A model generated the notes under the pieces. That model did no database searches. It saw nothing but the letters and a program-made list of their open reading frames with translations, and was not told the DNA's origin. Source: Lytechinus variegatus (taxonomy: Eukaryota; Echinodermata; Echinoidea; Temnopleuroida; Toxopneustidae). From it: a stretch of DNA of 64,000 nucleotides. Shown piece after piece: positions 25,100-49,866 of this stretch. The translations under genes and the position numbers were made by a program. Positions within the stretch are counted from its first letter, which is position 1. Every line of letters starts with the position of its first letter. Location of the stretch: contig NC_054747.1 of NCBI RefSeq assembly GCF_018143015.1, positions 763,407 through 827,406 on the forward strand, in the 5' to 3' direction.

Positions 25100-25583
25100 A
25101 GACGCACTATATATGACTGCCGATATTTCCTTCCTCGTTCGCAGCAGAACATTCGGGGAATCCTGCGACAACATGAATTATGGGCTGGAAAATGTTCTCC
25201 CAGTGCATTATGGGTATCCAGTTTCATTTGCAGACAATATAGTCAAATCGCTTTATTTTACTTAAATGGTCAAAGTATTAAAATGCATCCATTTGTTAGC
25301 ATTGTTTATATCGAACTTGCATAGATTTCTGAAAGACGTCGAAGGTCTAACACAATTTATACAGACCAACTTCCGGAAGTGAGTCTGACAGCAAGGTCAT
25401 GAGTCAAAAAGCTCGGAGATTCCCCATCGCCAAAAGGCTGTACTGAACCAAGCACAATTACCATAACAAATCACACTTCTCTGCACATGAGTGCGCAACA
25501 TCTATTCTTTCTGCTGATCTCAAGTTCACACCTTTTTAAGTAATTTTCAGCGCAAGTGATATATATCAACCATAAAAGGAGAT
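25100..25583 (+). promoter_or_regulatory. Duplicated promoter block, copy a (ETS, AP-1, NF-kB-like sites)
   Basis: This block is closely similar to 29242-29715. It contains CTTCCGGAAGT (25370-25380, ETS palindrome), TGAGTCA (25400-25406, AP-1 consensus) and GGAGATTCCCC (25415-25425, NF-kB-like) in the same order and spacing as copy b. The ATG of exon 1a follows 158 bases after the last site. Site names are from consensus only. Confidence 0.7.
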
Positions 25584-25656
25584 ATGGATGATCAACTTGT
25601 GAAGAAATGTTTGATTGGATTGATCTCCGTTTCTTTGTTAGGCTGCGTTATAACGG
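25584..25656 (+). CDS. Alternative or duplicate first exon 1a of the IFI44-like GTPase
   Basis: Encodes MDDQLVKKCLIGLISVSLLG plus four residues and ends at the donor GTAAGT in phase 1, exactly as exon 1b at 29716-29788. Differences from 1b include Cys for Tyr at residue 9 and Cys for Ser at 21. It could be an alternative first exon spliced to exon 2 at 31569, or the stump of a second gene whose later exons are gone; no second exon follows it before copy b. Confidence 0.7.
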
Positions 25657-26159
25657 GTAAGTAAAACCCACACATCATACTCTGGTGTACCTGAAGCTAG
25701 CTCTCTCTAAACTGGTGAAAGTTCATTGACGTTGTGTGACCTTTGAACCTAATCATGCGACCAAACCTTTACTTTTATGTTCTGTGTAGGTCCATATACT
25801 GTACGTTCAAAGCTATGGTGACATCTCAAAAACTTGATCTTTGTTAAGATTTTAATATTGACGACGCAGCCTTCCCCATTGTCGTAATCACGTCGTAATA
25901 ACGGCGCCTATATTTAGTTCCTCCTCTGCTATGCAGTCTAGACAAAGTAAGTTAACCCTGATGTTAAATTGATTCTAAAAGCAGAAAAAAATATTGGGGA
26001 AGGTATGATGAAAAATAACATAAATTTTAGAAAACAAGTTATCGTTATTTTCTTTTACTTTATGACGTCACAGACGACCATGTCATCTATTATTTTATGG
26101 GACATAAATTCCCCGAATTGTTTTCTTTTTGGGGGTAAACATATTCAATTCGTGTAGTG

Positions 26160-29241: not shown

Positions 29242-29715
29242 TATTATGACAGCCGATGTTGACTTAATGATTCGTACGTAGAACATCGGGGAATCCCATG
29301 ACAACATTAATTATGAGCTGGATAACGTACTCCCCAGTGCATTATGGGTATTCAGGTTCATTTGCAGACAATAATAAAATCGCTTTATTTTACTTAAATT
29401 GTCAAAGTATTAAAATGCATCCATTTGTTAGCATTGTTTGTATTGAACTTGCATAGAGTTCTGAAAGACGTCGAAGGTCTAACACAATAAATTCAGAACA
29501 ACTTCCGGAAGTGAGTCTGACAGCAAGGTCATGAGTCAAAAAGCTCGGGGATTCCCCATCGCCAACAGGCTGTACTGAACCAAGCACAATTACCATAACA
29601 AATCACACTTCTCTGCACATGAGTGCGCAACATCTATTCTTTCTGCTGATTTCAAGGTCACACCTTTTTAAGTAATTTTCTGCGCAAGTGATATATATCA
29701 ACCACAAAAGGGGAT
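29242..29715 (+). promoter_or_regulatory. Promoter block of the GTPase gene, copy b (ETS, AP-1, perfect NF-kB palindrome)
   Basis: CTTCCGGAAGT (29502-29512), TGAGTCA (29532-29538) and GGGGATTCCCC (29547-29557) lie within 56 bases. The last is a full palindromic kB site. ATATATATCAACCACAAAAGG, just before the ATG at 29716, may supply a TATA-like element. The order and spacing match copy a. ETS, AP-1 and NF-kB sites together are typical of inducible immune promoters; activity is inferred. Confidence 0.75.
29502..29557 (+). promoter_or_regulatory. ETS / AP-1 / NF-kB site cluster
   Basis: Three consensus sites in 56 bases, 159 bases upstream of the ATG. They are conserved in copy a with one difference that weakens the kB half-site (GGAGA for GGGGA). 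Confidence 0.7.
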
Positions 29716-29788
29716 ATGGATGAACAACTTGTGAAGAAATATTTGATTGGAATGATCGCCGTTTCTTTGTTAGGCTCCGTTATAACGG
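29716..29788 (+). CDS. GTPase exon 1b: start and first hydrophobic helix
   Basis: Encodes MDEQLVKKYLIGMIAVSLLG plus SVIT; donor GTAAGT, phase 1. It is duplicated as exon 1a at 25584-25656. Confidence 0.82.
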
Positions 29789-32700
29789 GTAAGTAAAACC
29801 CACACATCATACTCTGGTGTACCTGAAGCTAGCTCCCCGGGGGGGGGGGGGGCTGCACGCGACCAAATATGTGGTGGGGGTGTGCCGCGGGCGAGACGAA
29901 AAACGGGGGCCTTGGAGCGGGCTTATTGTAAAAAGGAGGGTTCTCGGAACGGGCTTCGGAACGACAAATGTTTGTGAAAACGGGGGTCCTTGGAACGGAT
30001 CGCCAACGTGTGAGTGCGTATGCATCCCTATGGAACGGTCATACGTGCATGATGCAACTAGCGCGGCCTCCGCCGGGGGAGCTCTGCGGCCGCTTTTCAC
30101 CAAAATACGACTCATTGAATGCGATCGGAGCGGCGTAACGAAAAATATGCGAAGCTTTGGAGCGGATTTCCCTCTTCTTTTTTCTCGATAAGAAGAAAAT
30201 GCTATGCCTTGGAGCGGCTTTCTTTGTTCTTTTTCTCAACAAGGCAAAAATGCTATGCCTTGGAACGGAAATTTGAGTGTGAAAATGGGGGTCCCCTCCG
30301 CGGCACATACCCACTATGCATTATATACTGAGTGCCCCCCCCCCGGGCTAGCTCTCTCTCAACTGGTGAAAGTTCATTGACGTTGTGTGACCTTCGAACT
30401 TAATCATGCGACCAAACCTTAGGCAAGACGATCGGTGATACTTGATAACTTGTATGTTCAAGGTTCATTAACTAGGTCCATATACTTCAGAGATATGGTG
30501 ACATCTCAAAAAATTAACCTCTGTTAAAATTTCAGTATTGAAATTAAAACAAATAAGTTATCGTAATTTTCTTTTATTTTATGACGTCACAGACGAAAAT
30601 TTCATCTTGTATATTCTGGGACATATATTCCCCAAATTTTCTTTTTTGTTTAAAGGTAAAAGTGCTTAATAGATTCTTGCAGTGGATACATGTATATCGC
30701 TAGTAACATCATTTCACGCTGTCTTTTAAAAGAAAAATTCTTTATCATGTTCCTTATTTCGTGCTACGGGAGAGCTGCTCGCATATGACGTCACAGAGAC
30801 TATTCAGTACGATTTCAATCGTTGATGGATTTCCATGAGGTTCTCACAAATAAAATAATATGGTTTCATTAAAACAGCTTATCGTCATAATGAACTTCTT
30901 CTTTAAAGGACAAGTCCACCCCAACAAAAACTTGATTTGAATAAAAAGAGAAAAATTCAACAAGCATAACACTGAAAATTTCATCAAAATCGGATGTAAA
31001 ATAAGAAAGTTTTGGCATTTTAAAGTTTCACTTATTTTTAACAAAATACTTATATGACCGAGCCAGTTACATCCAAATGAGAGAGTTGATGACATCACTC
31101 AATCACTATTTCTTTTGTATTTTATTATATGAAATATGAAATATTGTTGTTTTCTCGTCATTGTCATGTGAAATGAAGTTTCATTCCTCCCTGAACAAGT
31201 GGAATTCCATTATTTTAACATTTTGTGCTTCAGGCAAGGAGGTCCCAATCGTCAAATTCGTAAAAATTGAAATATTGTATAATTCAAACAATAAAAAACA
31301 AAAGAAATAGTGAGTTAGTGACATCATCGACTCTCTCATTTGAATGTTACTGGCTCGTTCATATAACTATTTTGTTGAAAATAAGCGAAAGTTTGAAATG
31401 TCATAATTTTCTTATTTTACATCCGATTCTGATGAAATTTTCAGCATTGTGCTTGTTTGATTTTTCTCCATTGATTCAAATCAACATTTTTCTGAGGTGG
31501 ACTTGACCTTTAAGTTACGCTTTCAACTCGGGGTCATTTGCACATAATTATGATTTGATTTCTTTCAGGAAGTGAAACGGTTTTCAAAGTAGTATTGTCG
31601 GTTCTCGTTGTGTTCGCTCCATTTGCAGTCGCTTGGTATATGAACAACACAGGTTTGTAGTATATTCTTCTCATTTTCCAATCCACTAGACCTATCAATA
31701 TATAACGCAGTTGCATTTGTAAAATACATGATTATAAGACGTATTAATAATGACATTGATAGTAATTAGGTTAATAGTAATAAAAAAAATGCTAATAATG
31801 ATGATAATAATGATGGTGATAATAACCATAATAATCGTCATGCGTACAGTTTTATATCACTTGCTTAATACCAGGGCCCCGTCTTACAAAGAGATACGAT
31901 TGATCCTATCAGTCAAAACTATATGGAAATCCAACAGTGTCATAACTTTCTACAGGAAATTTGAAAAAAAAAGTCCATTGTAAAGAAAGGAGAACACACC
32001 GAATTGTCAAGAGATTGATGAATTTATAAGTATACATCATTTCTAGACATTCTTTTTGAACAAACACGCATTTTATATGTTGATGTTGCTGGCCGTCCAT
32101 AGTTGCGATTGATAGGATCAATCGCAACTCTTTGTAAGACGGGCCCCTGATGATACAAATCGCAACGACTATTATATTAACAGGATCTGCCGCCTCATCA
32201 GCAGCGCTTAGTGCATTTAATTAATCAAACCTGGTAAGTACCTATTCAAAGATCCTGGGTCGATTGCAGCATAATTTGGATAATTTTTTGTTGATAGAAA
32301 ACACGACATTTTCATTTGATGGACTTGATAGCATTTATTCCATTCATCATAAAAAACAAGGCACATACAAAGTTAGACGGTCCCTCCATTTCCATGTTAA
32401 TTTAATTTCTATTAAAAAATAGTATACATATTTAAAACCTACAATGTGTTGCCCAAATTGTTTTTTTTTTACAACATATGTACTATTATTTTTTTTGCTA
32501 CGGATACAAATATTTATGTTTATATATGGTATACACTTTGATTTTGTTTGATGGAAGTGAAATAAACATGGAAAGTTATAAATGGTTTATTAAACAAACA
32601 GAAACCTGAAACCTCTGATAATAACTTTAACTTTTTAGAAATAATGAAATAGAAATCAGAAATGAAAATGACATTGCACTTGCATTTAATGAATATTTTA

Positions 32701-35700
32701 CCAATGTTGGACATACTTAGTCTATCACAAACAACATTGCAAGAGGTAATATTGATTATAGTTTTTACCTGAAAAACACCCTGCCTTGTTCTTTATTTCT
32801 CAAACCAATTACTGAAAAGGAAATTATTAACATTGCCAATTGTTTACAGAATGGAAAAGCCCCAGGAATTGATGGTGTTGACAATGCTGTTGTAAAAAGG
32901 ACAATTCATATTTTATGTAAACCATTATGCTTTATTTTCAATTTATGTATTCAAGAAGGAATATTTCCTGATAGTTGTAAAATATCACAAGTTATTCCTG
33001 TATATAAATCTGGTCCAAAAAATGTTTTCTCAAATTATAGACCAATTTCTTTATTATCATGTTTCTCCAAAATGCTGGAGAAATGTATTTATACTAGGCT
33101 AATTACATATTTTAACAATAATCATATACTTTATCAAAAACAATTTGGATTTAGAGAAAAACATTGTACATCTCATGCTCTGATAGATTCTTTAAATGAC
33201 ATTATAAATGCTTATGAGAATAACAAAATAACGTTTGGAGTGTTCATTGATCAAAAAAAGGCATTTGATTGTATTAACCATGACATATTGCTTAGTAAAT
33301 TATCTTTTTTATGGAATACGAGGTATTGCCCTTAAATTAATACATAATTATTTAAGTAATAGAAAGCAATGTGTTCTTTATAATTCATGTCATTCTGAGT
33401 TCAAGAAAGTATCAATAGGCGTACCGCAGGGTTCAATCCTCGGTCCTCTTCTTTTCCTTATATATGTTAATGATCTTCATCTCTGTTCTAATTTATTAAA
33501 ATTTGTTCTTTTTGCTGACGATACAAATATATTTTTTAGCCACAGTGACATAGGTTATTTACAACAAAATATGAATATTGAACTTAATAAAGTACAGGAA
33601 TGGTTCTCTGTTAATAACTTAGTTTTGAATATTCAGAAAACAAATTTTATGATCATCAGTAGAAATAATGTAGATAAAAAAATCCGTTAAATTATATATT
33701 AATGATACTGAAGTAGAAAGGGTGGAGAGTGTAAAATTTCTTGGAATCCACATTGATGATAATTTGAAATGGAAAAGTCATGTTAACAAGTTAAACTCCC
33801 TCATTTCTAGAAATATAGGTGTTTTAAATAGATTACGCGATTTTGTCCCACAAAATATTCTCTTAATGCTTTATAACACTTTAATTTTATCATATCTCAA
33901 TTATGGAATTATTGTTTGGGGGTCTTCAAATAAATATTTATTAGAAAGAACATTAGTTTTACAAAAAAGAGTAATCAGAATGATATCTTATTCTGGTTTC
34001 AGAGCTCACACTGCTCCACTCTTTCTTAAGTTTAAAATATTGCCTGTGTATGAATTATATAGTTACAATCTTGGTATCTTTATGTATTTATACTTTAAGA
34101 AATTACTTCCAATAAATTTTGATTCTTTATTTTGTAAAAATTCTGATATTCACAATTATGATACTAGAAGAAAATCTGATTACCGTGTATCATGTGGGAA
34201 ATTATCCTTATCCCGAAAGTCAATAATTCATAATGGTCCTTTATTCTGGAACAGTCTCCCTGAAGATGTCAAAAGTTCTCTATCCCTTCATGTATTTAAA
34301 TATAAACTAAAAACATTTCTTCTGCAAAAACTTTAATTTCGGTTTTTCCTAGACTAAGATACCTCAATTCATTTTTTTTTTCTTTTTTTTTCTAGTCTTT
34401 CTCTGCAAAATTCAAACTATTATTTACAAAATTGGGATTATGTTATAAGTTTTTAACTTTTTAAATGGTCCCCCACATTTACATATACTGTTTCTCTTCT
34501 TGTCTGATTTAAGTATTGTTCAGATTTTGGTTTATTGTTTTGTGTAGTGTATGTTTTCTTTATGCACTGGAATATATTGTACTGTATTTTGTAATACTAT
34601 CTTTACTCTGTATTGTTTTTTTTTTTATGAAGTGTGGAAATAAATGAATCAATGAATCAATCAATGAATAATGACGACACTGTGATTCGAATCCATGACC
34701 CTCGGAGAGTCAGAACCATTAGACTACTCCGCGCTCTATGAACGGCACTGGGAATTTCCGTGCTTTGTAAAACTATCAAGATGTCATATCAGGGCAGTGG
34801 CGTAATCAGTAATTTCGAGCGGGCTAGATATGGCACAAAAATCGATTATAAAAAGTTGCGAATGAAGCCAGCAAGCAAAAATGTCGACCTTTTATTACAA
34901 AATCCAATTTTGTGATAGATTTTTACATAAATTTCAGAAAATGATATCATATTTCACCCTTCTCTTTTCCTTTGTCTTCCTTTTTTTCCCTTTTTTTTCT
35001 TGGTCGTGAATTTTTGTTTTTCCCCTATCTGTACGCCATTGTGTTAAAAAAATAGCATAGAGGCCCAATATTGGCCACCGTGTTACATTTTGATCGGTTG
35101 AAAAAAAAACATTATGAAACTCCCTCTTGAAATTTAGCCTCCATTTTGCTGAATACCACAGGTTTATTCAGCTGGAAAATTAATAATTGTCAGTCCTTTT
35201 TCGCCTAATTACCTGACTTTGACTGATTAAAAAACTCATCTTGCACCAAACGTCCTCGTTATGCCTTCGGCAAGAAATGTATCCACATTGTGCTGCACTC
35301 AACCCAGGTGAGGTAAATCGGTACCTGGCAGGAATTTATTCCTAGAAATGCGTGTGTGATGTAATTTTAGTAATTACGACTGCCAAGCTACACCTGGGGT
35401 AATAATATCCAGATACTTTGGAAGCGCATAGAGACATTATTCATAAGTGTGATATGCACTATACAAGAACTGTATATCATTATATTATTAGTAGCATTAT
35501 TATTACTATTTTGCCACGCCGTATAGTAGTGAGAGCAGAGCGAGCAATGGGAATAAGCGCAACTGTGTAAATTGCATACAACCTTGTATACACTGAATAA
35601 TCTGGTTTTTGCTGGGTCCTAAGGGCTCGAATAGAGTACAATCAAATGTTTATTAAAAATCTAATAATTATGTTCCATAAGCAATACAATGCATAATATC

Positions 35701-38700
35701 AGTGACAACTGTTCGATTTTTTTGACATTTTTTTTTTAATTCATGTTTTACGCTTGCCAGCTGAAATTCGACGACTCCGTAAAAAGATCCAAGATTACCG
35801 ACCTGGTAATTGGACTATCAGAGATGCAGGGACTAGCTGCATAAGACCATCCAAGGTTAGACTAGGTGTCTTCGGGGTGCAAGACTCGGGCAAGAGTACT
35901 TTTCTCAACTCTCTGCACTTTGCCTACAAAGGTTTGAAGACTTCCATAAAAGCATATTGCGTTTCCTCACATTAGCTTAAGATCCACAAACCTTCATGGC
36001 ATCATCCGTCCCCCCCCCCCCAAAAAAAAAAAAAACATTTAAATAAAAAAAACAGGTTGATTCGCAAAATCCCGCCTTACGTTGTGAAATCGACTTTTAT
36101 ATTCTAGCAGAAATGTCTTTTTAATCTTCATTTTATCAATATATTGTGACATTAACCTGATGAAAAGAACACAGTGCCAGACAGTTTGATCACAGTGTCT
36201 TCACACAGTAAGAATATTATGCAAACTGTTAAAATGCACAAATTAAACAGTGCGAAGATATTTTCACACTGTGGACACCTCGACAGTGTGACTGTTCACG
36301 TGGTCGATTATATGTGAATATGACATTCGCACAGTAGAAATGCTCTAATTGAACAGTGTGAAAGTATTCTTGCATGTTTTTCCACAATGAACACTTTGCC
36401 ATAAACCGTGGGACACTGTGTTTTCATTAATGTATGCTTGCTCATTTTTTTTTTTACATATATTTGAATATTTGAATGTGCACATTCTTCTTTTATTTTT
36501 TAATGTGAAGCAACATGAATTAAGGACGTGCCACAATTAAAATTAAATTCATGTCGTTGTCACAAACTTTTGCACAAAAGTACCTCAGCGCCTAAATATT
36601 CCAAAAATATGCAAAATATAACATGGGCTCTCTGCTTGACTTTTTGCTTTCGAACTTCTTCGGATATTCTCATTCACAAGGTTGGACAATTTAAAACCTC
36701 ACAGGATCACTATGCTGGGTGTAAACATAATTATATTACTCATTCAAAATCTATGTACATTTCATCAAATTTCACAGTATAATTCGAAATTGCATGTATG
36801 TATAAGATAGATAATCCATTCATATTGCTATCCGATTGCCCCTTTAAGGCTGGCAACACCTTCAGATCTTTAAATTGTTGCAAAAAGAACAACTTTTCCC
36901 AAAAATTCGAAATTTCTGTTACAAATTTGCGAAGTAAAACAAATGCTGCACTTTTCTCAAAACCCATGTAATTTTCACCAAAATTTGCAAAGATGTATAG
37001 GAAACTATACTAAAGAGGTATAGACATCATATGGGTTTATGTGCTTGTTTCTAAATTATCAACACTTTTGTTGGAGAAAATTAGCTTTTTAAAACGTCAA
37101 ACTCGTCCAAAAGGTCTTGTATCCATGTGAGGAAGTATCTCAATCTGCTATTCCGTTTATTCAAACTCGGCGTCATATTCGTCATAATCGTAGAGGTATT
37201 AAAAAACGGTTCCATGGATAATTCAGCTAGCTAGCTTCAAATAACACCTCTAATATTTCATTAGAAGAAAGATCAAGGGGAAAAAATCCACTTATACCTA
37301 TTTCATGTAATTGTCACATGATCTACATTCTAACTGCAGATTCGATGTGTTATTTTATAACAAATAATGATAGAGTGCTTTGGAACTTTTCCTCACATAG
37401 TTACAAAGCCTTTGGCCCTCTCTTTTTTGGTGTCTTAAATACCACACTTTCCCCAACAAAAGTGTCATTCCAAAAAGCAAGCACATATTTTAATGTTTAC
37501 CCCGCTTAAGAACACAAGCTTGCAAATTTTGCTGAAAATGATGTGGATTTAAAAAATTGCGACATTTATTGTACTTCTCAGAATTTTAATAGAAATGTAA
37601 TTTTTTTTAGATTATGATTTTGTCATCTCCCACCACATGTGAAGAAAAATACAGGTGCTGCTAGCCTTAACCCTATCTAGGCCGGGGGGGGGGCCTCCGA
37701 GGCCCCCCCCCCCTCAACGTATCGCGATATTTTCGCCGTGCGATTTTTTTTTACCACGCCGCTCGCTGACTTTTTACTTTCAAGTCTTGCGCAACTTTTG
37801 AGACCAATTTTGCGTCACCTGGGTACGTGGTTCTGAAATTACGCAACATTATGTAAGTGCATGTCAGACCGAAAACTGCTCAAAAACGTGATTTTGTGTA
37901 CAAAGTCAATGCAAATTGTGTTTTCAACCAAAATTCATAAATGTATGATTATTTTTAGTTTTGCTAGTCTAAATGTATTCATTTTATGCTTTTTATGATC
38001 ACAGAAGAGTCCCCAACAAATTTCATTGAAAAAACAATGAAAAACAAAAGGTCAAAAAAACAAAGAAATACATAAGAAATTGCAAAAAACAATATAATAC
38101 ATATGAAAATGATTTGATATCACAATTCTTTTCATGTACACTTGCTAAGGACACCACAAAGAGTTTCTATACCAAAAATTAGTACATTTGGAGCTCTATT
38201 TAGGGAGTTAGAGGAAAAAGTATGATTTCGCATACTAATTACGCATAAATTAGCATAATCACTTAATAGCGATTCGCATGAAATAAATTACTATACAATC
38301 TTGTAGATTATGTCCCAGGCAACCCGCGTGCCAAATTTCGGTGCGATCGTGCGGTCGACGGCCGAGATCTTAGGGGGGGGGCCTGGGAGGCCCCCCCCCC
38401 CCCCCGGCCGCGCGTTTCCGTTTTACACCCTGGCGAAGGCATTTTCCGGAAAAGAAGCCAAAAAGCGACTAGTGAAGAGTCTACACACGTCGCTGGGTTG
38501 CATGCAGCGTGCGACACAGGCGAGTCCACCATACCACCGCATGCAATTTGCACAGTTACTGATCAGAGCACAGAGTTCCTCGGCACTTCATGTACAGAGA
38601 GAGCGGCAGTCAGGAGTGAAATCCGAACATGCTTTTGCAGTCGCGTTGTTTATGATAGTTTTTTTTTCTAAAAATAAATTATTAACTAAATGAATAGAAT

Positions 38701-41700
38701 GACAGACAAAATCAAAATAAACAGATACTTATAATGGAAAGACAAATTTAAGTTTGATGGATTGATACACTTAGAAGCTGCCGAAAGATAGATATAGAAG
38801 ACTGATAAATAGATAGAGACAAGATAGACCCCGGAGATAGATAAATAGATAAATAGATCGATAGATAGATAGATAGAAATAGAGAAAGAGAGAGAGAGAT
38901 GTGGATAGATAGAAAGAGAGAGAAAGAGATGGATGGATAGATAGAGAGAGGGGGAGACACAGCTAGAGAGGTCGATATATAGAGGGAGAGGGGGAGAGAG
39001 AGAAAGAGAGAGAGAAGGAGAGATGTTGTAGATAGAAATATGGACGGAGAAAGAGAGAAAGAAGACAGACAGATGCTAGAGAAGGAGAGAGATAGAGAAT
39101 TTGAGAGACAGATAGATAGATGTTAGATAGATAGAAAGATAAAGAATGAGAGAGACAGAGAATATAGACAAATTAACAGATAGATAGATACATAGATAGA
39201 TATATAGATAGAGAGAAATAGAGAAAGACAGACAGATGGATGGATAGATAGAGAGAGATAGATAATTTGAGATAGATAGATGTTAGATAAAGAATGAGAG
39301 AGACAGAGAAGATTATTAGATAGATAGATACTGCAGTATTGAACCTGGAAAGTATAAGCTCAGCTGCGGATAACTTCGGTGCGGACTTTGGATCGCGCGC
39401 CCAGCTGATAATGTAAACAAACGTAGACGTAGACTCTTCACTAGTCGCTTTTTGGCTACTTTTCCGGAAAATGCCTTCGCCAGGGTGTAAAACGGAAACG
39501 CGCCCCCCGGCCATAGGAACTCCCAAAATACCCCGGCCTAGATAGGGTTAAAAAACAAATAGCTATACGAAAGACTTTTTCATCTACCGCATACAATTCT
39601 GTACTATACTGTAAAATCTAATAAAATTTAAGTTGATTTACTTAAACAGGTTCAACGTACTCAGATGTGCCAAGGTCTCGACCCAAAGAACTTCTAATTG
39701 GTTAATTTCAAAGCTCAAAGACACTTTTACTCGAGGGCGTAGGACACTGCGTTTATGCGACCTCAAGCCAGAATTATGATTTGAATCATGAGTCAAAACA
39801 CAAACATGAATCACAATACCACAAAATCAGCGTTTAGACGACCTTCGTTCTAATTGATGTTTCTCCTAGGATTCTGGCCCATCAAGTGAGCACCACAGTG
39901 CGCAGTTTGCACGTGTTTTGGATCTCGAGAAATCAATATTTTGCTTCCAGAGTTCAGTCATACCTCATTTTGTTTATACTTCTATTCGTCCTATCGGTTT
40001 TTCGAAAATGGTGTTCGGAAGTAAATTTCAGCGTAGATCCAATTTATTACTAGATTGACAATGTCACTCAACAACAACTGAGATCATTGTCTGTCCAGTT
40101 AGTTCATTTACTAGAACTTGAAGTTGAAGATATGATAACAAATGAAAAGCAGTGGACGATGCGATGACCAAAACAGAACTCGAACATGTACATGTATTGC
40201 TCCTATGTACATACACTGAGCATAGTGGGGGCCTTGAGCTTGGCAAGAGTCAAACCGAAAATGGCTCAACACAGTGACGTCATATAATCGTGATTCAAGT
40301 GACGATTGACCTGTTTCGTTCGTGATTCTACAGAAACGTCTCTCCCTTTTTCCGTGTTTCAATTTAATGATTTGAGAGAAGTTTATTTTCACTTTTTGAC
40401 TAAACGCAATCGTGATTTTTCAGAATCATGATTTGAATCAGGATTCTATGGTAAAAATAAGTGGCCCATGAACGCACCTTTAGTCCCTCCGTAACAAAAT
40501 ATTCAGCAACGCAAGCTGTATGATGTACTTTCGCAACCGCAACGGGAGATATTAGATCCGCTGTTAGTATGCAAAATTCTAGTTGCTACTGGGGGTACAA
40601 AGATATCTCCGATTTGGGAGGAGTTTTTAGAGCTATGTTGGAGTCGTCGTAGAGCTTTAAAACGCCTTCGTTATATTGAAGCAACAGTCAAGCAACGCGC
40701 ATCTAGACAGATTATTACATTACTGCACTCCGTAAGGGAACCTATGCCCAATAATAAATTCTTGATTTCCATCAAAATAATGGTCTATATGGATTCAATT
40801 TTCAAAAATACATCCAGGTATCAATTTCTTACTATGTATCCTACAAGAACGAATTCATGGTGAAAGTACGATTTTTTTTTCCAAACTTACGAAATGGTGT
40901 CGCCTGCACCTTGTGGTGATCGAAACATCTGCTACACTACCATAAATGTCATGAATGTAGTATTCACAAGAATTTTGCACGCGATCTAATATTGTGTTGC
41001 TATTGATGCGAGAACTTGCAAATAGCAAAAAAATCAAGCACAGGGATGAACCCTTGTGAATGTTTGCATATTTAGAGTAAAGTAATAGTACTAAATTAAC
41101 AAGGTGCAAATTTGTTCGCTTCATTATAAAGGTGCATGGGAGCAAGTCTACATCGAGAGCAATACGGTATGGCCAGGAGGCGAGACTATGTTTCGAGATC
41201 CGGCTATACTAACCGATCAAGTAATAACTTTCGATACACGTGGGCTATCTGATCTGAGTACTTTCAGAGTTTCTGATGTCATGGATGAAATCAGTTGAGT
41301 ATTATGCATCTTTTACATGTCTTCTGCTTATATTGATAGTGTTTACCCCACCGGCGGATTTAATCCATCCCCCTTCGATTTGGGGGAGACTCGAATTGAA
41401 AATTGTCATTTTTGGGGAAGGTTGTGGTATAAAGAATCAGTATTACAATGTTTGCATTTGCAATGTGACCTATATGTAGCTGCCATCTTTTAAGTTACAA
41501 AATGGCCGACGAGAATCAGAGTTTTTCGATCATATATCTGTGTCTAAGTAACCTTGAATAATACTTTTCGCAATAAGCCAATATTTCTGACATTTATTGA
41601 CATAAAATAATAAACTTTTTTTCAGAAATAAAATCCTTGTGATGATTTTTTTTTTTTTTTTTTTGGGGGGGGGGCTTTTTTGTCTCGAGTAAACGAAGTT

Positions 41701-44700
41701 CGGTTGAGACCTATAAGTAATCACGCTTCCTGTTGATCAGTTAGTCCGTTAGACTGTTCGAAAATTTTAAAGTTTTTGTTTAACTTTCTCTCATACTTGG
41801 CGCATTTGATCCGTGGGTAATACTACATGAACATCTGCGAGGATGATTAGGTCAAAGGTCATACATGTATCTGGGTCAAAAGGTAAAATGATAATGTTAA
41901 AGTTTTTGTGCAACTTGCTCTAATTTTTTTCTGCATAAACTATGCCCACACTTGATTTATATGATCCTAAGGTAATACCACATGTGTGTCTATGAGGATG
42001 ATACGGTCATCTAGGAGTCAAAAGGCCAAGTGTTTGTTCAAATTACTCTCATTTATTTCTGCATCAATAATTGTGTTGACACTTGGTACATGATCATCCT
42101 TGGCTTATGTCACTTGCAGGCTGATGAGGGTGATGGGGTCAAAAGGTCAAATGGTGTTAAAGTTAATGTTCAACTTGCTCTTATTCTTACTCTTACTCTT
42201 AATTCATTTCCGCATGAAATATGTTGACACTGGGTTCATATGATGCTTGGGTAACTCCACGTCGTGTATGTCGTGTATGCCGTTTCTTATCATTTGGCAT
42301 GTGTTTCAAGTACAATGATCAAGGTCCGAGGTCATCATGGGTCAATGAACTTTGACCATATTGGGGTATCGATTAGATTATGGTTTTTACAAAATCATCG
42401 TAACTAAAAAGTGTATAGCAGTTATCACGTTTCACTGAGTATCTTGCATGAGTTTCATGTCATATGTTCAAGGTCAAAGATCATATGGGGTCAATGAACT
42501 TTCATCATGATGTGGTTTCAATACTTTACCAAGGGTAATATTTGGATTTTCAAGATAATTTTGCAATTTCAAGTCCCTATTATCTTAATTTTTTATTGAA
42601 TAATGGTCATGAAGTGGTTTAGAATCCAGTATTTTGTCGAAAACCATGTACTTGGCTGCCATTTTGTAATATGCAAGAGGGTGGCCGTATAGTTCTCGGT
42701 GCAAATGGAAACATTGTTATCCTGATCATTCATTATATAATTACCTTTCCAAAATATATTGTTTCTAATTTCTTCAAAATATGAACAAAGTCAACCCGAC
42801 TATAAGTTATTGTTAGTTTGTTTCATAGTTTGTGAAGCAACAAAACAACTGTAATAACCGGTAATAACAATTTTATTTTGTTTAATCGAACACTTCCCAT
42901 TAGGTGGAAAGCGAGGAATCAACCCTCATTGTCGGACTACTGGAGAGAGGATCGACTGTCCTATCTTTATCCTGAAATACAAGTACGTAATTATGGACAT
43001 GAGTGTGTGGGATGTCTTTTCATTATGTTTTTATTTGTTATATGCGTGTGGGTGCACGTGTGCAGATGCGTACTTTCGTTTATGATTGTGGGTGTATTCG
43101 TGTGAGTGAGTGATGTGGATGGGTGAAGACCTACATTAATGGTAGGGAGTGTGTGGCTGGGTGTGTGTGGAAAGCACATGTATATAAGAAAGAAATGAAA
43201 TGACATTAATGGCACTCCAGTCGCTCATTCCGAAATACATTGACAGCGTTTCCACAGGAGTTTTGGAATCTGTTTTCAGAAAGTTAATGTGTTGCTCTGT
43301 TTATTTGTTTACACGTGATCGGCTATTGGTTCAAAATCAAAAGCCGTTGCAAAATCGGCTTTTGGATTATCTTGCATCTTGCGTTTACACGCTGTCACAG
43401 CTCGCGGTGCAGAAAAATCGGCTCGCGTGGCAAAAAAAAATTGATGATCTGCGCACCAATAATATACGTCAAAATAAAGACAACGCTGGATCCTTGTACG
43501 TCATAATAGTACAGTGAATAAAATACGCCCCAATTGCCGATGCAGAATCGGCTTTCTGTTTACACGTAGAAAAAATGCTGATTCTGCATCGGCTCGCAGT
43601 TCTGAACCTACTACTTTGGTGGTGCAAAATTGCAGATTCTGCACCGACAGCCGATGCCAGTTGAATCGGCTTTTTTGTTGCAGCGTGTAAACACGGTAGT
43701 TTTTCCAGCCTAACGCACCCCATTTAATTTAGTTTTGTAAAGACTTGCAATTTTTGCGGACTCGGTTTTTTTCTATTTGAAATGACGGGCCTGAAAAAAT
43801 CTCCCCTTTTTATGTCGCAACCAGGCTAAACAACGTGGAGTGATTTGAACAAACTATATCATCATCAAATGCACTCTACCGACCAGTTTCATAAATGAAT
43901 TTTATGAGATGGGTTGTATGAGAGAAGGTTTCAGATTGGTTAATTGCACTCTTTTGCAATTACGTAATCCGGTGTATGGCCACGATCGTGGCATATAACA
44001 GCAATTTCTGCACGGTAGCTTGACTGTGTACAAGTTTTAATAGAATGATGTATTTTTTCATTACATTAACTAAACGAATATTGCTTTTTGTGTTGTATTA
44101 CAACTTCGTTTTTTTTTACTGAGCGTAATGAATCGAATCGAATTGTAATGCCTTGTGACAGTACATTTTTTAGTTCAGTAAGTTAAGATATATTTTTAAT
44201 ATATATACAATTTCAAGACAGAAGTGTTCCCCTCTTTTGAAAAGCTGCAAAACGAGCAGAAATAGTCATGAAGGGTCAATACAGAAATCGATTCTTTTGT
44301 CTGAGATGTCAATACAGATGAAAATCCATTCAAATCAAGCCCCTGCTTCTGTAGAGATAGTTTTGTGAGATAACATGGTTTGAGTCGTGGTTTGAAATAC
44401 CCATGCATGCTTGTTTGGTTATTTTTGTGTTTGCTTGTGCAGAGGTGTGATTGATTCATGTTAATGTTGATGTTAAGATGCATGAGAATAATAAGAAAAA
44501 ACGCTGAGAAACTCACTCATCACCACTGAAAAAAGAACGGTGACATTCAATATTGTGTCATTTTGTAAATTTTGGATTTTGACCTCGCCCAACATTTCAA
44601 GGCACCGCACCTCCATGTAAACGATAATCACATCATGTAGGGTATCGTTTTAAAGGAAATCAAATGATCTGTTCATTGATATTAGTTACACATTGATATT

Positions 44701-47700
44701 TACTCAAACTGATGTGAAACTCACTCATCACCACGGAAAAAACAGTGATTTTCAAAAATGTGTCATTCTGCAAATTTAAAATTAAAATTAATTACACATT
44801 AGTATTTACTATAGTCTAGGAGAGATTATCGATCAAAGTCAGATTTTCAAACTTGTTTTTAGGAGTTTACAATACCATTCGTATACATGAATTTCAAATT
44901 TCTCTTGTGCGTTTATTTCAACTATGCCTGCGGCCTCGATGAAATATAGAAACACGCAAGAAATTTTAAATCTATGCACTCATGGTATTTTGAACTACTT
45001 AGCATGCATTACATGTATATATTTTTTGTGATAATGAACAGTTTTTAATTCTAAGATTTAGGCGCGATGTAGGGACTTAGGTTACTCACCTTATTAGGAA
45101 GCTTTCGCAACCACTAGGCATTCCACTTCCGTGAACACAGAGAATGTATTGTCAAGTGCCTTTCATAACATTGAAATCTTTGTCGATGGTTGATGAATTG
45201 AAACAGCAATTTCTTCCTGGACTGGAGGCAAACAACATATTTGCAATTTTTCAGCTCCGAAACGCCAAACAAAGCTTTTGTTCCTATTCATCAATTTTCG
45301 CCAAAGACATTCCAGTTGTTCATTGTGATTTGACTTGCATTTTCAATACATTTGCTGTGTCCTTAGATTCGTCCTGCGTCGTGTGCAAATACTTTCTATA
45401 TGCACATGCGCTTGGGGCAGGTTCCTTGTTTTACCGAATAGTAAATCGCATCGAGTGCGCTGTGTCACCACAAAAATTATCACCATCATTTTATTTGTAT
45501 TTTGTTTCCTAGCTCTGCTACTGGAATACAACATTGTGGAAACTTCCTATCGTCACTTGTACCAAGAATCAGGCAAGAGTTCGGTAAGTTCTCTTATCTA
45601 AAAAAAGTATTATCATTACTTTGTTTTCTATTTTTAACACGTAAAATAAAGTGCAGTAGGTTTCACGACGCACCTTGTCTTTTTCTTGGGCAAATATTAG
45701 TCCTGAAAAGAACCAACCAAACTCGACGTTTCGACACGTGTGTTCTTGTCGTCTTCAGGTTAATCAGTAAAGTTTGTAAAAGGAGGTATTGTATACTCTG
45801 TCAAGTTGCCGTGCATGTCAAAACGTGAAGATTGAGTCGTCCTTTTCAGGGCCAACATTTGCCCAATAGATATACTCTTTTTACACAGGATTTTCTAAGC
45901 CTTGGACTGTCGCGAACCCCGAACTATCCTTAACCCCGTTCTTTTTTAGGTGATCTGTCAATCGACAGATTAACTATTAATTTCGTAAGAATTTTCTTTT
46001 TTATTTATTATTTCTTAACTTTTATTTTTCCACCCATTTCTTGTTACCATAAAATCTCCAAATCTACTCCATCAATTATCTTCTAAATATCATCAGTTAT
46101 GGGGACTTATCATGTCATCTGGATGAAACCAGTTCAAGGTCAAAAGGTCATCATGACGTCATCTAGACGCCATTTTGTAAAATCACATAATCATATCTTC
46201 ATTATCAATTGTCAAAAATTAACAATATTCACATCACATTAACTTCAGGTCAAGGGTCAACTGTCCATGTCATTAAAGGTCATGTAAAGGTCACGACGTG
46301 CGCGTACGCGCGCGTCAAAATTTTAAAATGCTCAAAATCACTTTTTGACCAAAGTAGAGTATGAATCAGGTCATTTTAAGCATTTCAAATATTTGCGCGC
46401 GCGCACAGTTCCGCGCGCGTTTCTGCGCGTAACGGCACTATACAACATAGGATCACCATTTTTTTATATCAATGCATCCGTAATAAAATTCAGAGTAATT
46501 TGATACCTTGATCAACTTTCTACAAGTAATAAAGGAATTAGCCTCCATCAAAGTTTACAGCACGCGCGCACGCGCGCACTAAACATAGACAATATATGTG
46601 CAAAAATATGCCTATACAAAATTCATAATAGCTTTTAAAGTAGTCCGTTGACCCCCATTTTTTTCACATTTGAATGGAGTATAGATGGGAGATATAATTT
46701 CATGTCACATTTGACCTGAAATTATATCATGACGTCATGAAAATGACGTCTGAACTAAAAAATTCCATTTTGCTACTTATGACGTCATCATAATTATGCT
46801 AATTTGACTCTAACTCTGTAAATATTGGTCAATTTTCGCTCAGTTTTCAGTATGTTGTAGCTGAGGACATACTCTTTCTATTTTGATGGCTATATTAACA
46901 TTTAAAGGAATGGATCATCCTTAAAAAATCCAAGTTAAAGAGTTATGTCATTTTCGCTCATTTTGTGTGCAATCTCTATGGGAAATGACTTTTTCTCAAA
47001 ACTGGATTTTACATTCCTCTATTTCGCGAGCCATATCTCCATTTTTTCTGGTCGGTTTTCTTTGAGCTTTGAGTATGTTGTAGCTGAGATTCTTAGCTAT
47101 CGGAAATGTTCATTTATTTTCCGATCAGATGCCTGGATAATCCATTTATTTCACTTGCAAAATTGGATTAGAGATCCTCTTCATTTGCTTATGTGTAGAG
47201 TCCTTGGCAATGTAAATGTCAGTTGTAGTGGTCACTAATGATTGTAAACAGCAAACTCACCTTTGACCTGTGACTCACAGACTGTGAAGTCTCTGAGATA
47301 TGGTACCTAGCTAGCTCTCTCCGCCTCTCTCTCTCTCTCTGCCTTATCTTTCCTTTTTTTACATCATCACAAGACGGATTAAACTGCAACTTTCCTTTCT
47401 GACACACTTATCAAAGTTTTCTTCTCGAGTAAACATGAGTTTTGTGAACGTCGTCAACTTAATACTTTTGTGGGTTTCTATCTCACTTGGAGCAAACGTC
47501 ACAGCCTACATTGTATCTTCCACCTCATCTCATATACAAGTTTTGTACTACCGTTTTTTCTGTTATTCACCAAGAGAAAAATCCAAAAGAACGTGTGTGC
47601 TAGCCAAGTCAGTTTTCTTATAACATCTGTGTGGTTTTGTGTCAGATATTAGGATTGTACAATAATTGGAACATTATATTGGAGGATTTCTACTTGGATT

Positions 47701-49866
47701 TGTCTACATGCCTTAAGTTGGTAAGGTGCTTGGATATTGTCATTCAATCATATAACCAACCCCCGTTTCAGTATAAAAGTTAAAATATTGCATATTAAAA
47801 TATAAAATACATGTATATCATGATACTGTATATATCTGTCACATAACTTTCCCTTTTCCCGATTTTCAAGTTATCAACACATTCTTTTCAGAATGACAGA
47901 GTTAGTTTTCATCATGATGATCATATTAATCTAAATTAACATGTAGATTGTATTATTCAACATATTCTTTTTTAAGAAAAGTTCAGTTTTCATCATGATG
48001 ATCATATTTATTCAATAAACATGCTGATTGTCTTCGTGTTCATAAAATCAGAGACAGATCACCTAATTCGTCCTCGTGACGAATTAGAATTCTAGTTTCT
48101 TTTTTTTTTTTTGCTTTTTACACATGCCAAATTGTTTTTGCTAACCCCGGATAAGGATGCTTGCTTTTCACACACGAAACTCGCTAGCCCCGGACTAGTG
48201 GTAGTTCATGAATATTCACGAGCGTCGATGAGGAAAGTATTAAAACACGAATTCCAACTCGCTGACTTATAGCGCACTTTTTCTCATCGCCGTGTTTGCT
48301 GTTCATGAATATTCATTATGCTTACCTCTGATTAGACAACAGAGCCGGCTCTGTTGCGGGGCATGATTGGGAGCGCTTGGTCCACTTCCGTTTTACACTA
48401 GCGATCTTAACCCCGTACCATTGCTCTTAGCACCGCAATTGCTGGGATAACCCTGCCCTTTTGCAGGGCCAAATAATCCCGTACTAAAGGTGGGGTTAGC
48501 CCAATTTGCACAAATGCTGTGGAAAAAGAATGTGGGCTAAGCTTAACCCCGTATAGGTGGGGATAAGTGGCAATTTAGCCCCACCTATAGTACGGGGTTA
48601 AGGAAATTTAAGCATGTATAAAAAGGGTAAAAGATACATGTGTCATAAAACCTACACTAGTCTTTTTCGCCATGAAAACCTTCAGAAGTTGCGTAAAATA
48701 TAATACTACACCGACACCGACTGTTTCTGCTACAGTCATGCCTGTACGTCTCATAGACCATATAGACTACTCGAACTACTACAGTAAACACTGATTTCAT
48801 TAGAAAGTCTGTAAAACTAGGGTTAATTGTCAGTATATCATTGAGGTTCTAGATTTGGTACAGTTACATAAACCGAATTTTTTGTTAAATTTTGAAATCA
48901 GCGCTGAAAAATGTTCACACTGAAGATCACCAACATACATGTAGATAAGCACACGTGGGATAATGTATTACTATTGCTTTGAATGTCGGCCCGCGCTTGA
49001 CCGGAATCCTGTGCTTATTTGCTAATTTCTCAGAAATTACACAATTTCTTACAGAATACTTTGGCACATATTTTTACAAACAGACACTTTGGTGGACATT
49101 TCATTGGATTCTTAATATCGTTACCACAACTGGCATTTACCTTTCAAATAAATCCAGATCGGCTGTGAATACTGACCAGCCGAATATTAGATTTAGCTTC
49201 AAAGTTGTAGATTTGAATATAAATCTAAAACATTTGAATTTAAATCTTTTGAGATTTGAAAGTTAATCCTAAAGATTTAGAATGAATCCGAAATTCTGCT
49301 GGTCACTAAACACAGTCGATCTGAAATTATTTAAATCATGATTGGAATTAAGAGTGTACTAAATGCTATTTATATATCACCATTATCTTTTTTTTACAAT
49401 CCTCCCCACCCTCACCACTTTCGTTATCATCATCACCGAATTCAATAACACTTTCATTATCATCATCACGATCATCATCGTTATCATCATCACCACTACT
49501 ATTATCTTCGTCATCAAAACTGTCATCAACACCACTTATTACCGTCATCTTCATCACCACCATTGTCATCATCATCATCATCCTGCAGGCTCGTATCCGA
49601 TAATGGTTGTGACCTTCGCTAACAGCATTTTGAACCAGTATGAGATCGTTGACGACATCACCAGAGCTGGTATGGAGAAGAACAGTCTATTCTTCATTGA
49701 GAACTACACAGCTTTGAACCATGAGATGAATTCTAAGAAACACATTGCTCTTCTCAAGATCCTGGAAGCCTGCATCAAGCGAGCCGATGATACCATCACC
49801 TTCCGCTGGCGAAAAGAGAAGGAACCCGTAGTCAAGCCTGAGGGCCACAAATGTAAGATAATGTAA
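29716..49866 (+). CDS. IFI44-like GTPase with N-terminal membrane hairpin and C-terminal CaaX box (seven exons)
   Basis: Exons 29716-29788, 31569-31652, 35761-35931, 41132-41293, 42904-42982, 45513-45583 and 49589-49866 join in one frame to 305 residues, all with GT-AG borders. Residues 9-25 and 32-49 are hydrophobic and separated by a short loop, with KK before and RRLRKK after. That pattern fits a hairpin with both ends in the cytosol. The P-loop GVQDSGKS is at 91-98 and the DTRG switch-2 motif at 144-147. GERIDCPIFIL near 149-190 matches the region after switch 2 in IFI44/IFI44L. A TKxD base-recognition motif is missing; VVTFAN stands there. The protein ends CKIM, a CaaX prenylation signal. 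The family is interferon-induced in vertebrates, with a poorly understood antiviral or regulatory role. The function here is inferred only from that and from the promoter sites. Confidence 0.88.
29836..30346. mobile_element. 511-base insertion with 8-bp target-site duplication in GTPase intron 1
   Basis: GCTAGCTC flanks both ends (29828-29835 and 30347-30354), while the corresponding place in copy a (25696-25703) has GCTAGCTC once and no insertion. The ends are C/G homopolymers (CCCCGGGGGG and CCCCCCGGG). The inside carries repeated CTTGGAGCGG/CTTGGAACGG words. A second, reversed copy lies at 58017-58517. The 8-base duplication suggests a hAT-type mobiliser. Confidence 0.88.
30355..30890. repeat. 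Remainder of the duplicated intron block plus GACGTCA-type repeat remnants
   Basis: 30355-30540 matches copy a at 25703-25860 (AACTGGTGAAAGTTCATTGA, then GACATCTCAAAAA). It is followed by TTTATGACGTCACAGACGA and GCATATGACGTCACAGA blocks, also present near 26.06 and 10.52 kb. Confidence 0.6.
30903..31513. mobile_element. MITE, GGACAAGTCCACCCC family, copy 2 (complete)
   Basis: Starts TTTAAAGGACAAGTCCACCC and ends in its reverse, AGGTGGACTTGACCTTTAA. The inner arms also pair, with TTCATCAAAATCGGATGTAA on one side and TTACATCCGATTCTGATGAA on the other. The family is one I associate with sea urchin DNA. It lies 55 bases upstream of GTPase exon 2. Confidence 0.88.
31569..31652 (+). CDS. GTPase exon 2: second hydrophobic helix
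   Basis: Encodes GSETVFKVVLSVLVVFAPF and then AVAWYMNNT; acceptor ATTTCTTTCAG, phase 1 at both ends. With exon 1 it makes the membrane hairpin. Confidence 0.8.
31746..31850 (+). repeat. (AAT/ATG)n microsatellite-like tract
   Basis: Imperfect GATAATAATGATGG runs in GTPase intron 2. Confidence 0.7.
31872..32149. mobile_element. MITE with GGGCCCGTCTTACAAAGAG ends
   Basis: CAGGGCCCCGTCTTACAAAG at the left pairs with CTTTGTAAGACGGGCCCCTG at the right, and the GATTGATCCTATCA blocks pair inside. It lies in GTPase intron 2. Confidence 0.88.
32550..34670 (+). mobile_element. 5'-truncated LINE with reverse transcriptase (CR1/L2-like)
   Basis: Broken frames give reverse transcriptase motifs in order: NGKAPGIDGVDN (about 32850), YRPISLLSCFSKMLEK (33040), FGFREKHCTSHAL (33145), IDQKKAFDCINHDIL (33245), GVPQGSILGPLLF (33418), FADDTN (33510), then KFLGIHIDDNLKWKSH (33735) and LFWNSLPEDVK (34240). 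The 5' endonuclease part is missing. There are a few stops in the first 300 bases and frame shifts near 33.3 and 33.69 kb. The 3' end runs into AATGAATCA repeats. It lies in GTPase intron 2. Confidence 0.92.
34670..34760 (-). mobile_element. tRNA-like SINE head, minus strand
   Basis: On the minus strand GCGCGGAGTAGTCTAATGGT resembles an A-box arm and GGTCATGGATTCGAATCACA a B-box arm about 40 bases later. It directly abuts the LINE tail. Confidence 0.6.
35265..35500 (+). mobile_element. SINE body and tail in GTPase intron 2
   Basis: Contains CTTCGGCAAGAAATGTATCC, then GTGCTGCACTCAACCCAGGT, then GGTAATAATATCCAGATACT, and an AT-rich end. These shared SINE blocks are also at 2.9, 22.2 and 28.5 kb. 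Confidence 0.78.
35761..35931 (+). CDS. GTPase exon 3: basic linker and P-loop
   Basis: 171 bases encoding residues 53-109, from AEIRRLRKKIQDY to LHFAYK. GVQDSGKST is the Walker A (G1) motif. The lysine/arginine-rich start fits the cytosolic side of the membrane hairpin. Confidence 0.88.
36170..36440. repeat. Palindromic cluster of CACAGTGTGA words
   Basis: CACAGTGTC, TTCACACAGT, AACAGTGTGAAAG and TTCACACTGTGGACA recur in both orientations over about 270 bases, as in a decayed foldback element. Confidence 0.65.
37677..39551. mobile_element. piggyBac-like foldback element with TTAA ends
   Basis: The left end is TTAACCCTATCTAGGCCGGG and the right end its reverse, CCGGCCTAGATAGGGTTAA, with TTAA at both borders as in piggyBac-type insertions. 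An inner inverted pair of about 80 bases (38405-38485 against 39425-39505; TTTCCGTTTTACACCCTGGC and reverse) brackets a GATA microsatellite. It carries C and G runs and no transposase. It lies in GTPase intron 3. Confidence 0.82.
38775..39330 (+). repeat. (GATA)n/(GA)n microsatellite block
   Basis: More than 500 bases of AGATAGATA and GAGAGAGA words, inside the piggyBac-like element. Confidence 0.92.
39560..41100. other. GTPase intron 3, remaining part
   Basis: No supported exon. Contains an ATGATTTGAATCATGA/AATCATGATTTGAATCAGGA inverted pair (39775-40440), suggesting another decayed foldback element. Confidence 0.45.
41132..41293 (+). CDS. GTPase exon 4: switch region with DTRG motif
   Basis: 162 bases encoding residues 110-163, from GAWEQVYIESN to SDVMDEI. 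ITFDTRGLSD matches the VLCDTMGL-like G3 motif of IFI44 proteins. The acceptor is CGCTTCATTATAAAG and the donor is the weaker GTTGAG. Confidence 0.85.
41800..42560 (+). repeat. Diverged copy of the CAAGGTCAAAGGTCA-type tandem repeat
   Basis: Several units with GGTCAAAAGGTCAAA, CTTGGTACATGATC, AAAGTTTTTGTGCAACTTGC and GTCAATGAACTTTGACCAT recall the 26.5-27.4 kb repeat. Confidence 0.65.
42904..42982 (+). CDS. GTPase exon 5
   Basis: 79 bases encoding SGKRGINPHC, RTTGERIDCP and IFILKY, with the DRIHC-like segment of the IFI44 family. Acceptor CACTTCCCATTAG; consensus-like donor GTACGT; phases 1 in, 2 out. Confidence 0.83.
43240..43735. mobile_element. Foldback element rich in GCAGAATCGGC words
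   Basis: GTTTACACG, GCCGATGCAGAATCGGC and TGCACCGACAGCCGATGCC words occur in opposite orientations, with GTTTACACGTGATCGGC near the left end and GAATCGGC...GCGTGTAAACAC near the right. It lies in GTPase intron 5. Confidence 0.7.
43745..45500. other. GTPase intron 5, remaining part
   Basis: No exon could be supported. A CTCACTCATCACCAC direct repeat (44511 and 44721) marks a small local duplication. Confidence 0.45.
45513..45583 (+). CDS. GTPase exon 6
   Basis: 71 bases encoding NSATGIQHCGNFLSSLVPRI then RQEF. Strong acceptor TTTTGTTTCCTAG and donor GTAAGT; phase 2 in and phase 1 out fit exons 5 and 7 exactly. It is an amphipathic segment preceding the next beta-strand. Confidence 0.83.
45928..48604. 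mobile_element. Foldback element (CTTAACCCCGTA ends) split by a 2.1-kb element
   Basis: CCTTAACCCCGT at 45928 and ACGGGGTTAAGG at 48593 are inverted. The right part, 48110-48604, is itself foldback-like with repeated TAACCCCG words. The element at 45946-48066 interrupts it. Confidence 0.6.
45946..48066. mobile_element. 2.1-kb DNA element with TTAGGTGATCTGTC inverted ends
   Basis: The 14-base ends TTAGGTGATCTGTC and GACAGATCACCTAA are perfect inverted copies. The interior has the TCAAGGTCAAAAGGTCAT, CATGACGTCAT and GCGCGCGC words of a deuterostome-type intergenic repeat. No transposase was recognised. It lies in GTPase intron 6. Confidence 0.75.
48620..49400. other. GTPase intron 6, unassigned part
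   Basis: AT-rich. An inverted GATTTAAATT/AGATTTGAAT-type cluster lies at 49150-49330, flanked by GACCAGCCGAATATT and AAATTCTGCTGGTCA, which suggests a small foldback element. Confidence 0.5.
49415..49583 (+). repeat. (ATC)n microsatellite abutting the exon 7 acceptor
   Basis: Imperfect TCATCACCA/ATCATCATC repeats run straight into the splice acceptor TCATCCTGCAG. Confidence 0.92.
49589..49866 (+). CDS. GTPase exon 7: C-terminal domain and CaaX box
   Basis: 278 bases encoding residues 214-305: GSYPIMVVTFANSIL, then FIENYTALNHEMN, then LLKILEACIKRADDTI, ending KCKIM and TAA. NYTALNHEM and the ILEACIKRADD helix match the NYASDLELD and LRQMLRAADD segments of IFI44L. This confirms the family and the end of the gene. 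Confidence 0.88.

What the first reader, a model, noticed from the sequence alone, without database searches (positions are those of the whole stretch)
29716..49866. IFI44-like GTPase anchored at both ends: N-terminal hairpin plus C-terminal CaaX
Seven hand-joined exons give an unbroken 305-residue frame. Two hydrophobic segments with flanking basic residues (KK and RRLRKK) predict a hairpin with both ends in the cytosol, and the protein ends CKIM. Vertebrate IFI44 proteins as I know them have neither feature. A membrane-embedded, possibly farnesylated family member would put this GTPase on a membrane surface, as GBPs and atlastins are.
Basis: partly seen in the sequence, partly recalled or inferred. 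Interest (0 to 1): 0.88.

Follow-up and report, generated by a model that had tools for sequence, protein, structure and literature searches.

The report
Predicted membrane-anchored IFI44-like GTPase gene
An animal gene in this window appears to encode a relative of the antiviral IFI44 proteins in which the usual front domain is replaced by a predicted membrane hairpin and the tail looks ready for a lipid anchor, so it probably works on a membrane; no transcript has yet been seen.

Summary
The hydrophobic exon 2 is not a chance frame: 0 of 200 shuffles gave one. The G domain resembles IFI44L collinearly (E 3e-5), also without the P-loop (z 6.5, 0 of 1000 shuffles), but the reference sequences were recalled. 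The model protein lacks TLDc, and recalled IFI44 and IFI44L lack both ends. New: promoter and exon 1 are tandemly duplicated 4.1 kb upstream. Weak points: exon 4 donor scores -5.0; a donor-like site (6.2) overlaps the CKIM codons; recalled IFI44 proteins recover only exons 3 and 6 by tblastn at E 10; 4 of 4 homologue scans found nothing. Whether echinoderms share both ends could not be tested. Verdict: a new variant of a known kind, predicted only.

The parts
29716..29788 (+). Exon 1 (residues 1-24 plus one base): MDEQLVKK and hydrophobic segment 1; donor GG|GTAAGT
   Evidence: donor 11.3 and in-frame stop at the 9th codon upstream
31569..31652 (+). Exon 2, hydrophobic segment 2 (VFKVVLSVLVVFAPFAVAWYM); multiple of 3, phase 1 on both sides, so skipping it keeps the frame
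   Evidence: 0 of 200 shuffles gave a hydrophobic equivalent
35761..35931 (+). Exon 3: RRLRKK, IQDYRP and P-loop GVQDSGKS (G1)
   Evidence: best tblastn hit in the window of recalled IFI44L (E 0.10) and IFI44 (E 1.2)
41132..41293 (+). Exon 4: DTRGLS (G3) and following helix; very weak donor TCA|GTTGAG
   Evidence: alternative in-frame donor at 41240 (5.9) would remove 18 residues
42904..42982 (+). Exon 5: ERIDCPIFIL, aligned with DRIHC of recalled IFI44/IFI44L
   Evidence: found with a motif search, so not independent of the family reading
45513..45583 (+). Exon 6: SATGIQHCGNFLSSLVPRIRQEF
   Evidence: second-ranked tblastn hit of recalled IFI44 in the window, E 3.4
49589..49866 (+). Exon 7: PIMVVTFANS (in place of TKxD), FFIENYT, IKRADD helix, basic tail, CKIM and stop
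49852..49863 (+). Codons for CKIM; a donor-like site (T|GTAAGA, 6.2) starts at 49853
25584..25656 (+). Duplicate exon 1 (MDDQLVKKCLIGLISVSLLGCVITG), same donor; candidate alternative first exon
25112..25703 (+). Duplicated promoter plus exon 1 block; 547 of 594 columns identical to 29245-29835
32721..34333 (+). Broken non-LTR reverse transcriptase in the intron between exons 2 and 3
   Evidence: PF00078 in 2 of 3 open pieces scanned, E 7.4e-14 and 2.5e-13

Best explanation
The locus encodes a GTP-binding protein with an IFI44-related G domain but no TLDc domain. Its N-terminus is a hydrophobic hairpin (residues about 9-24 and 29-49, short GSET turn) that would sit in an internal membrane with both ends in the cytosol, holding the G domain on the cytosolic face. 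After the last helix a basic tail ends in CKIM, a plausible farnesylation site, which would add a second hold on the same or a facing membrane. I infer that nucleotide binding drives self-association on the membrane, making a scaffold or tether in an immune setting, as proposed for membrane-bound GIMAPs. Shown: the reading frame, hydrophobicity, motif order and similarity to recalled IFI44/IFI44L. Inferred: splicing, membrane insertion, prenylation, nucleotide use and immune function.
For: Frame and exons. BLASTP with recalled IFI44L, residues 57-281 against 180-431, 58 of 272 identical, E 3e-5 for that one comparison. Residues 53-305 against the C-terminal parts of recalled IFI44L and IFI44: z 9.8 and 9.1; after the P-loop z 6.5 and 5.6; 0 of 1000 shuffles in each of these four; exon 7 alone z 5.8 (1 of 1000) and 3.0 (9 of 1000). 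The protein ends about as far past ADD (24 residues) as recalled IFI44L and IFI44 (21 and 25, counted on the sequences). CxIM has a chance of about 4e-5 from the protein's own composition, C-x-[VIL]-[MSQAC] about 8e-4. I at a2 and M at X were the two positive patterns in Ras-based yeast FTase data (PMC10320760, passages). CSIM and CAIM are human lamin CaaX sequences and CWIM was farnesylated (PMC11152559, passages). GIMAP2 has a C-terminal double hydrophobic domain and localises with a lipid-droplet marker (PMC8201404, passages).
Against: No transcript. Exon 4 donor -5.0, exon 5 acceptor -1.1. Segment 1 is short and moderately hydrophobic; segment 2 has a central proline. K at a1 in combination with X was one of two negative a1 patterns in the Ras-based data. 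A donor-like site overlaps the CKIM codons. G4 reads TFAN, not TKxD. With recalled IFI44/IFI44L as queries, tblastn at E 10 recovers exons 3 and 6 only; a two-sequence profile ranks exon 3 first (E 0.081) and exon 7 fifth (E 6.2); exons 4 and 5 were not among the 15 rows seen. Exons 4-6 alone are weak: 22 and 14 of 1000 shuffles reached the score. Duplicate exon 1 differs at 5 of 73 bases, 5 of 5 changing the residue; the flank differs at 14 of 285 just upstream, 33 of 188 further upstream and 1 of 48 downstream, so exon 1 is not more conserved than its near flank. IFI44's and IFI44L's effect on RSV did not depend on their predicted GTP-binding region (PMC7459546, passages). No Pfam or NCBIfam model passed its cut-off.
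Confidence: 0.42

Rival explanations
1. Exon 1 is a cleaved signal peptide and exon 2 a single transmembrane span (type I), with the G domain still in the cytosol; or exon 2 is skipped in frame and exon 1 alone is a signal anchor.
For: Exon 1 alone has a charged start and a short hydrophobic core; exon 2 is a multiple of 3 and skipping it keeps the frame.
Against: KK before segment 1 and RRLRKK after segment 2 fit a hairpin equally well; no cleavage predictor was available, so this was not tested.
Confidence: 0.25
2. The CaaX end is an accident: exon 7 splices at T|GTAAGA (49853) into a further exon, or CKIM is present but not prenylated.
For: Donor-like score 6.2, equal to the exon 2 donor. 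Of 14 downstream acceptors scoring 3 or more up to 60000, the one at 53423 opens 43 residues, hydrophobic, and the one at 50922 (5.7) opens 20.
Against: Four other sites scoring 6 or more lie inside the coding exons (35806, 35856, 41167, 49670), so such sites are common; the other 12 acceptors open 0 to 31 residues; an AATAAA lies at 50590. The length past ADD already matches recalled IFI44 and IFI44L.
Confidence: 0.3
3. The gene is a recent pseudogene or an allele with a damaged exon 4 donor.
For: Donor -5.0; five of five exon 1 differences are nonsynonymous.
Against: The frame is open through seven exons; an alternative in-frame donor scoring 5.9 exists at 41240. Five of five nonsynonymous is not unusual for so few changes (estimate, not computed in a call).
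Confidence: 0.15
4. It belongs to another GTPase family (GIMAP, GBP, dynamin or G-alpha) and the IFI44 likeness is only the shared P-loop.
For: Weak Pfam hits include Dynamin_N, G-alpha and MMR_HSR1, starting at the P-loop; a profile of the three proteins reached 59 PDB sequences at E 1, led by mt-EngA (E 0.00018) and G-alpha chains, nearly all at the P-loop end.
Against: Similarity persists without the P-loop, with IxDYRP, [DE]RI[HD]C, NY and ADD in order.
Confidence: 0.1

Closest known systems
Vertebrate IFI44 and IFI44L
   Same: Collinear G domain: IxDYRP (IFI44L), P-loop, DxxGL, [DE]RI[HD]C, NY, ADD helix, similar length after it. The sequences are recalled; their lengths (452, 444) and 46% identity agree with 452, 444 and 45% in PMC7459546 (passages).
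   Different: No TLDc in the model protein; hydrophobic hairpin instead; CaaX end; TFAN at G4; 17-18 residues shorter between G3 and the [DE]RI[HD]C strand (my count). IFI44 is described as cytoplasmic, with low levels seen in the nucleus.
Oyster CgIFI44L-1
   Same: Invertebrate IFI44-like protein.
   Different: 479 residues with TLDc and MMR_HSR1, mainly cytoplasmic, as reported in PMC11682996 (passages).
GIMAP2 / GIMAP5
   Same: Immune GTPases of similar size (GIMAP5 307 residues) held on membranes by hydrophobic segments; GIMAP2 has a double one (PMC8201404, passages).
   Different: Anchor at the C-terminus; AIG1 did not appear among the 8 Pfam rows for the window protein.
GBP1/2/5
   Same: Interferon-inducible GTPases with a prenylated CaaX (PMC12571816, passages).
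   Different: Large proteins without an N-terminal hairpin (recalled); no GBP model among the 8 Pfam rows.
Atlastin
   Same: Membrane hairpin with both ends in the cytosol (recalled).
   Different: Hairpin follows the G domain; no CaaX (recalled).

Membership tests
IFI44 family, G domain | Collinear sequence similarity to IFI44/IFI44L across the G domain | tested here: met
   E 3e-5, z 9.8, z 6.5 without the P-loop. Caveat: the reference sequences are recalled, checked only by length and mutual identity against PMC7459546; exon 5 was found with family knowledge
IFI44 family | N-terminal TLDc domain | tested here: not met
   PF07534 is not among the 8 Pfam rows for the model protein. In the window, a profile of full-length recalled IFI44/IFI44L gave no N-terminal match better than E 0.81, and that one lies in the reverse transcriptase (2153 ORFs; 50 listed at E 50, 15 rows seen). 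Limited power: recalled IFI44L itself scores TLD below cut-off. So it is not filed as a full IFI44 member
IFI44 family | P-loop and DxxG motif | tested here: met
   GVQDSGKS, DTRGLS
IFI44 family | [TN]KxD-like G4 | tested here: not met
   TFAN at the expected strand end; recalled IFI44 has THVD and IFI44L TKVD
IFI44 family | Interferon or immune induction | not testable with these tools
   No expression data; two kappa-B-like loci lie upstream
CaaX proteins | C-terminal Cys-x-aliphatic-x | tested here: met
   CKIM by translation, if exon 7 ends at 49866; prenylation itself not testable
Membrane hairpin proteins | Two closely spaced hydrophobic segments with cytosolic flanks | tested here: inconclusive
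   KD 1.76 and 2.31 with basic flanks; no topology predictor
GIMAP / GBP / dynamin | Match to AIG1, GBP or Dynamin_N models | tested here: not met
   No model above cut-off; Dynamin_N E 0.016 on 17 residues only

The most novel reading that the evidence does not exclude
A branch of the IFI44 family has swapped its TLDc domain for an N-terminal membrane hairpin and gained a prenylated tail, giving a doubly anchored immune GTPase that tethers or scaffolds membranes, expressed from two tandem promoters with slightly different membrane-embedded first exons.
Probability: 0.25. Interest if true: 0.7.

Novelty: new variant of a known kind. Interest (0 to 1): 0.5.

Why it matters
How IFI44 and IFI44L act is poorly understood; one study found their effect on RSV independent of the predicted GTP-binding region (PMC7459546, passages). 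A relative built into membranes would point to a membrane site of action for this G domain and could be tested directly. Nine library searches showed, in the rows listed, no title on a membrane-anchored or prenylated IFI44 relative. Those lists were capped, the library lacks most subscription journals, and I read passages of seven papers only, none as a whole.

Tried and rejected
Rejected: direct joining of exon 1 to exon 3 as the main form (exon 2 is too well supported); phase-1/1 exons for 5 and 6 (0 candidates, 8 unconvincing; the chosen pair runs 1-2-1); the alternative exon 4 end at 41240, which removes GLS and the helix shared with IFI44. Paralogues in the window: beyond the gene's own exons only exon 1 is repeated with a good score (E 1.4e-6); the remaining tblastn hits have E 0.63 or more.

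Led nowhere: Pfam and NCBIfam, PDB by sequence, viral and genome contigs (1, 21, 123 and 595 pattern matches, 0 confirmed), Rfam (0 matches).

Full report
What is there. I scanned the region for stop-free frames and splice sites and built the chain outwards from the P-loop exon (35761-35931), the DTRGLS exon (41132-41293) and the last open exon (49589-49866). Exon 2 came out of a phase and splice scan. Exon 5 was found with a motif search for the strand that precedes G4.

How firm the exons are. Exon 2 is the key to the hairpin claim. At acceptor 4.0 and donor 6.0 there are two phase-1/1 exons on the + strand and one on the - strand of the whole window; only exon 2 is hydrophobic. Of 200 dinucleotide shuffles of the intron region, 3 gave any candidate and 0 a hydrophobic one. 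Exon 6 is unique at acceptor 1.8 and donor 9 (1 on +, 0 on -); at donor 6 there are 6 and 3. Recalled human IFI44 picks exon 6 as its second best tblastn hit in the window, though at E 3.4, and exon 3 is the best hit of both recalled proteins (E 0.10 and 1.2); exons 4, 5 and 7 are not among the tblastn hits at E 10. The exon 4 donor (-5.0) and exon 5 acceptor (-1.1) are weak. My splice matrices are approximate and recalled.

What family. No curated family passes its cut-off, but neither does the G domain of recalled IFI44L, so this says little. Direct comparison with recalled IFI44L aligns residues 57-281 with 180-431, 58 of 272 columns identical, E 3e-5 for that single comparison. Against 1000 shuffles the scores stand at z 9.8 (IFI44L) and 9.1 (IFI44), and 6.5 and 5.6 after the P-loop, with no shuffle reaching them; exon 7 alone reaches z 5.8 and 3.0 (1 and 9 of 1000), exons 4-6 alone z 2.6 and 3.2 (22 and 14 of 1000). 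My recalled sequences are 452 and 444 residues with 46% identity, against 452, 444 and 45% in PMC7459546 (passages). I take an IFI44-related G domain as likely. The model protein has no TLDc and no TKxD, so I do not file it as a full IFI44 member; it works like, and probably descends with, that family.

The two ends. Segment 1 (KD 1.76) and segment 2 (KD 2.31) stand out against at most 0.88 in residues 62-305; recalled IFI44L and IFI44 peak at 1.30 and 1.17 and end QPCI and QGKK. Flanking charge puts both ends in the cytosol by the positive-inside rule (established knowledge). CKIM fits the farnesylation pattern at a2 and X; K at a1 is less favourable in one data set (PMC10320760, passages). 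The string CKIM does not occur in the main text of that paper or of PMC11152559. The codons for CKIM contain a donor-like GTAAGA scoring 6.2; four other sites of 6 or more lie inside the coding exons.

The duplicated first exon. A block at 25112-25703 repeats 29245-29835 (547 of 594 columns identical), and three further blocks in the first intron match at 80-84%. Both copies keep an in-frame upstream stop, the ATG, KK and the GTAAGT donor. Differences are 5 of 73 in the exon, all five changing residues, 14 of 285 just upstream, 33 of 188 further upstream and 1 of 48 downstream. No second copy of exons 2-7 was found in the window, so the upstream copy may act as an alternative first exon or be a remnant. 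The second block has an insertion of about 0.5 kb right behind exon 1 (29836-30346).

How it may work. Shown: intact P-loop and DxxG, altered G4. Inferred: the hairpin holds the G domain on a cytosolic membrane face, and the tail may add a lipid anchor; nucleotide-dependent self-association then builds a scaffold or tether. [quoted passage not shown] An IFI44 homologue is upregulated in RLRb-expressing immune cells of a sea anemone (PMC13319465, passages), which makes an immune role plausible but says nothing on this gene.

What could not be done. No eukaryote sequence collection, no genome for the window, no topology or prenylation predictor, no expression data.

Noticed in passing
25112-25703 and 29245-29835: Tandem duplication of promoter plus exon 1, 92% identical; five of five coding differences change the residue.
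   Followed up: yes
29288, 29547-29548: Two kappa-B-like loci (GGGRNNYYCC, three of 11 matches in the window) within 430 bases upstream of exon 1; in the upstream copy the scan found only a looser form at 25415.
   Followed up: partly
11586-11861 (+), 9659-10186 (+), 2351-2668 (-): Death-domain-like open frames; 11586-11861 passes the Pfam cut-off (PF00531, E 3.3e-6), the other two do not.
   Followed up: partly
32721-34333: Broken non-LTR reverse transcriptase in the intron between exons 2 and 3.
   Followed up: partly
29836-30346 and about 58104-58600: Insertion behind exon 1 whose open frames and 51-52 base repeat resemble an oppositely oriented copy near 58 kb (seen by eye).
   Followed up: no
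22520-22882 (-): C2H2 zinc-finger fragment just below the Pfam cut-offs.
   Followed up: no
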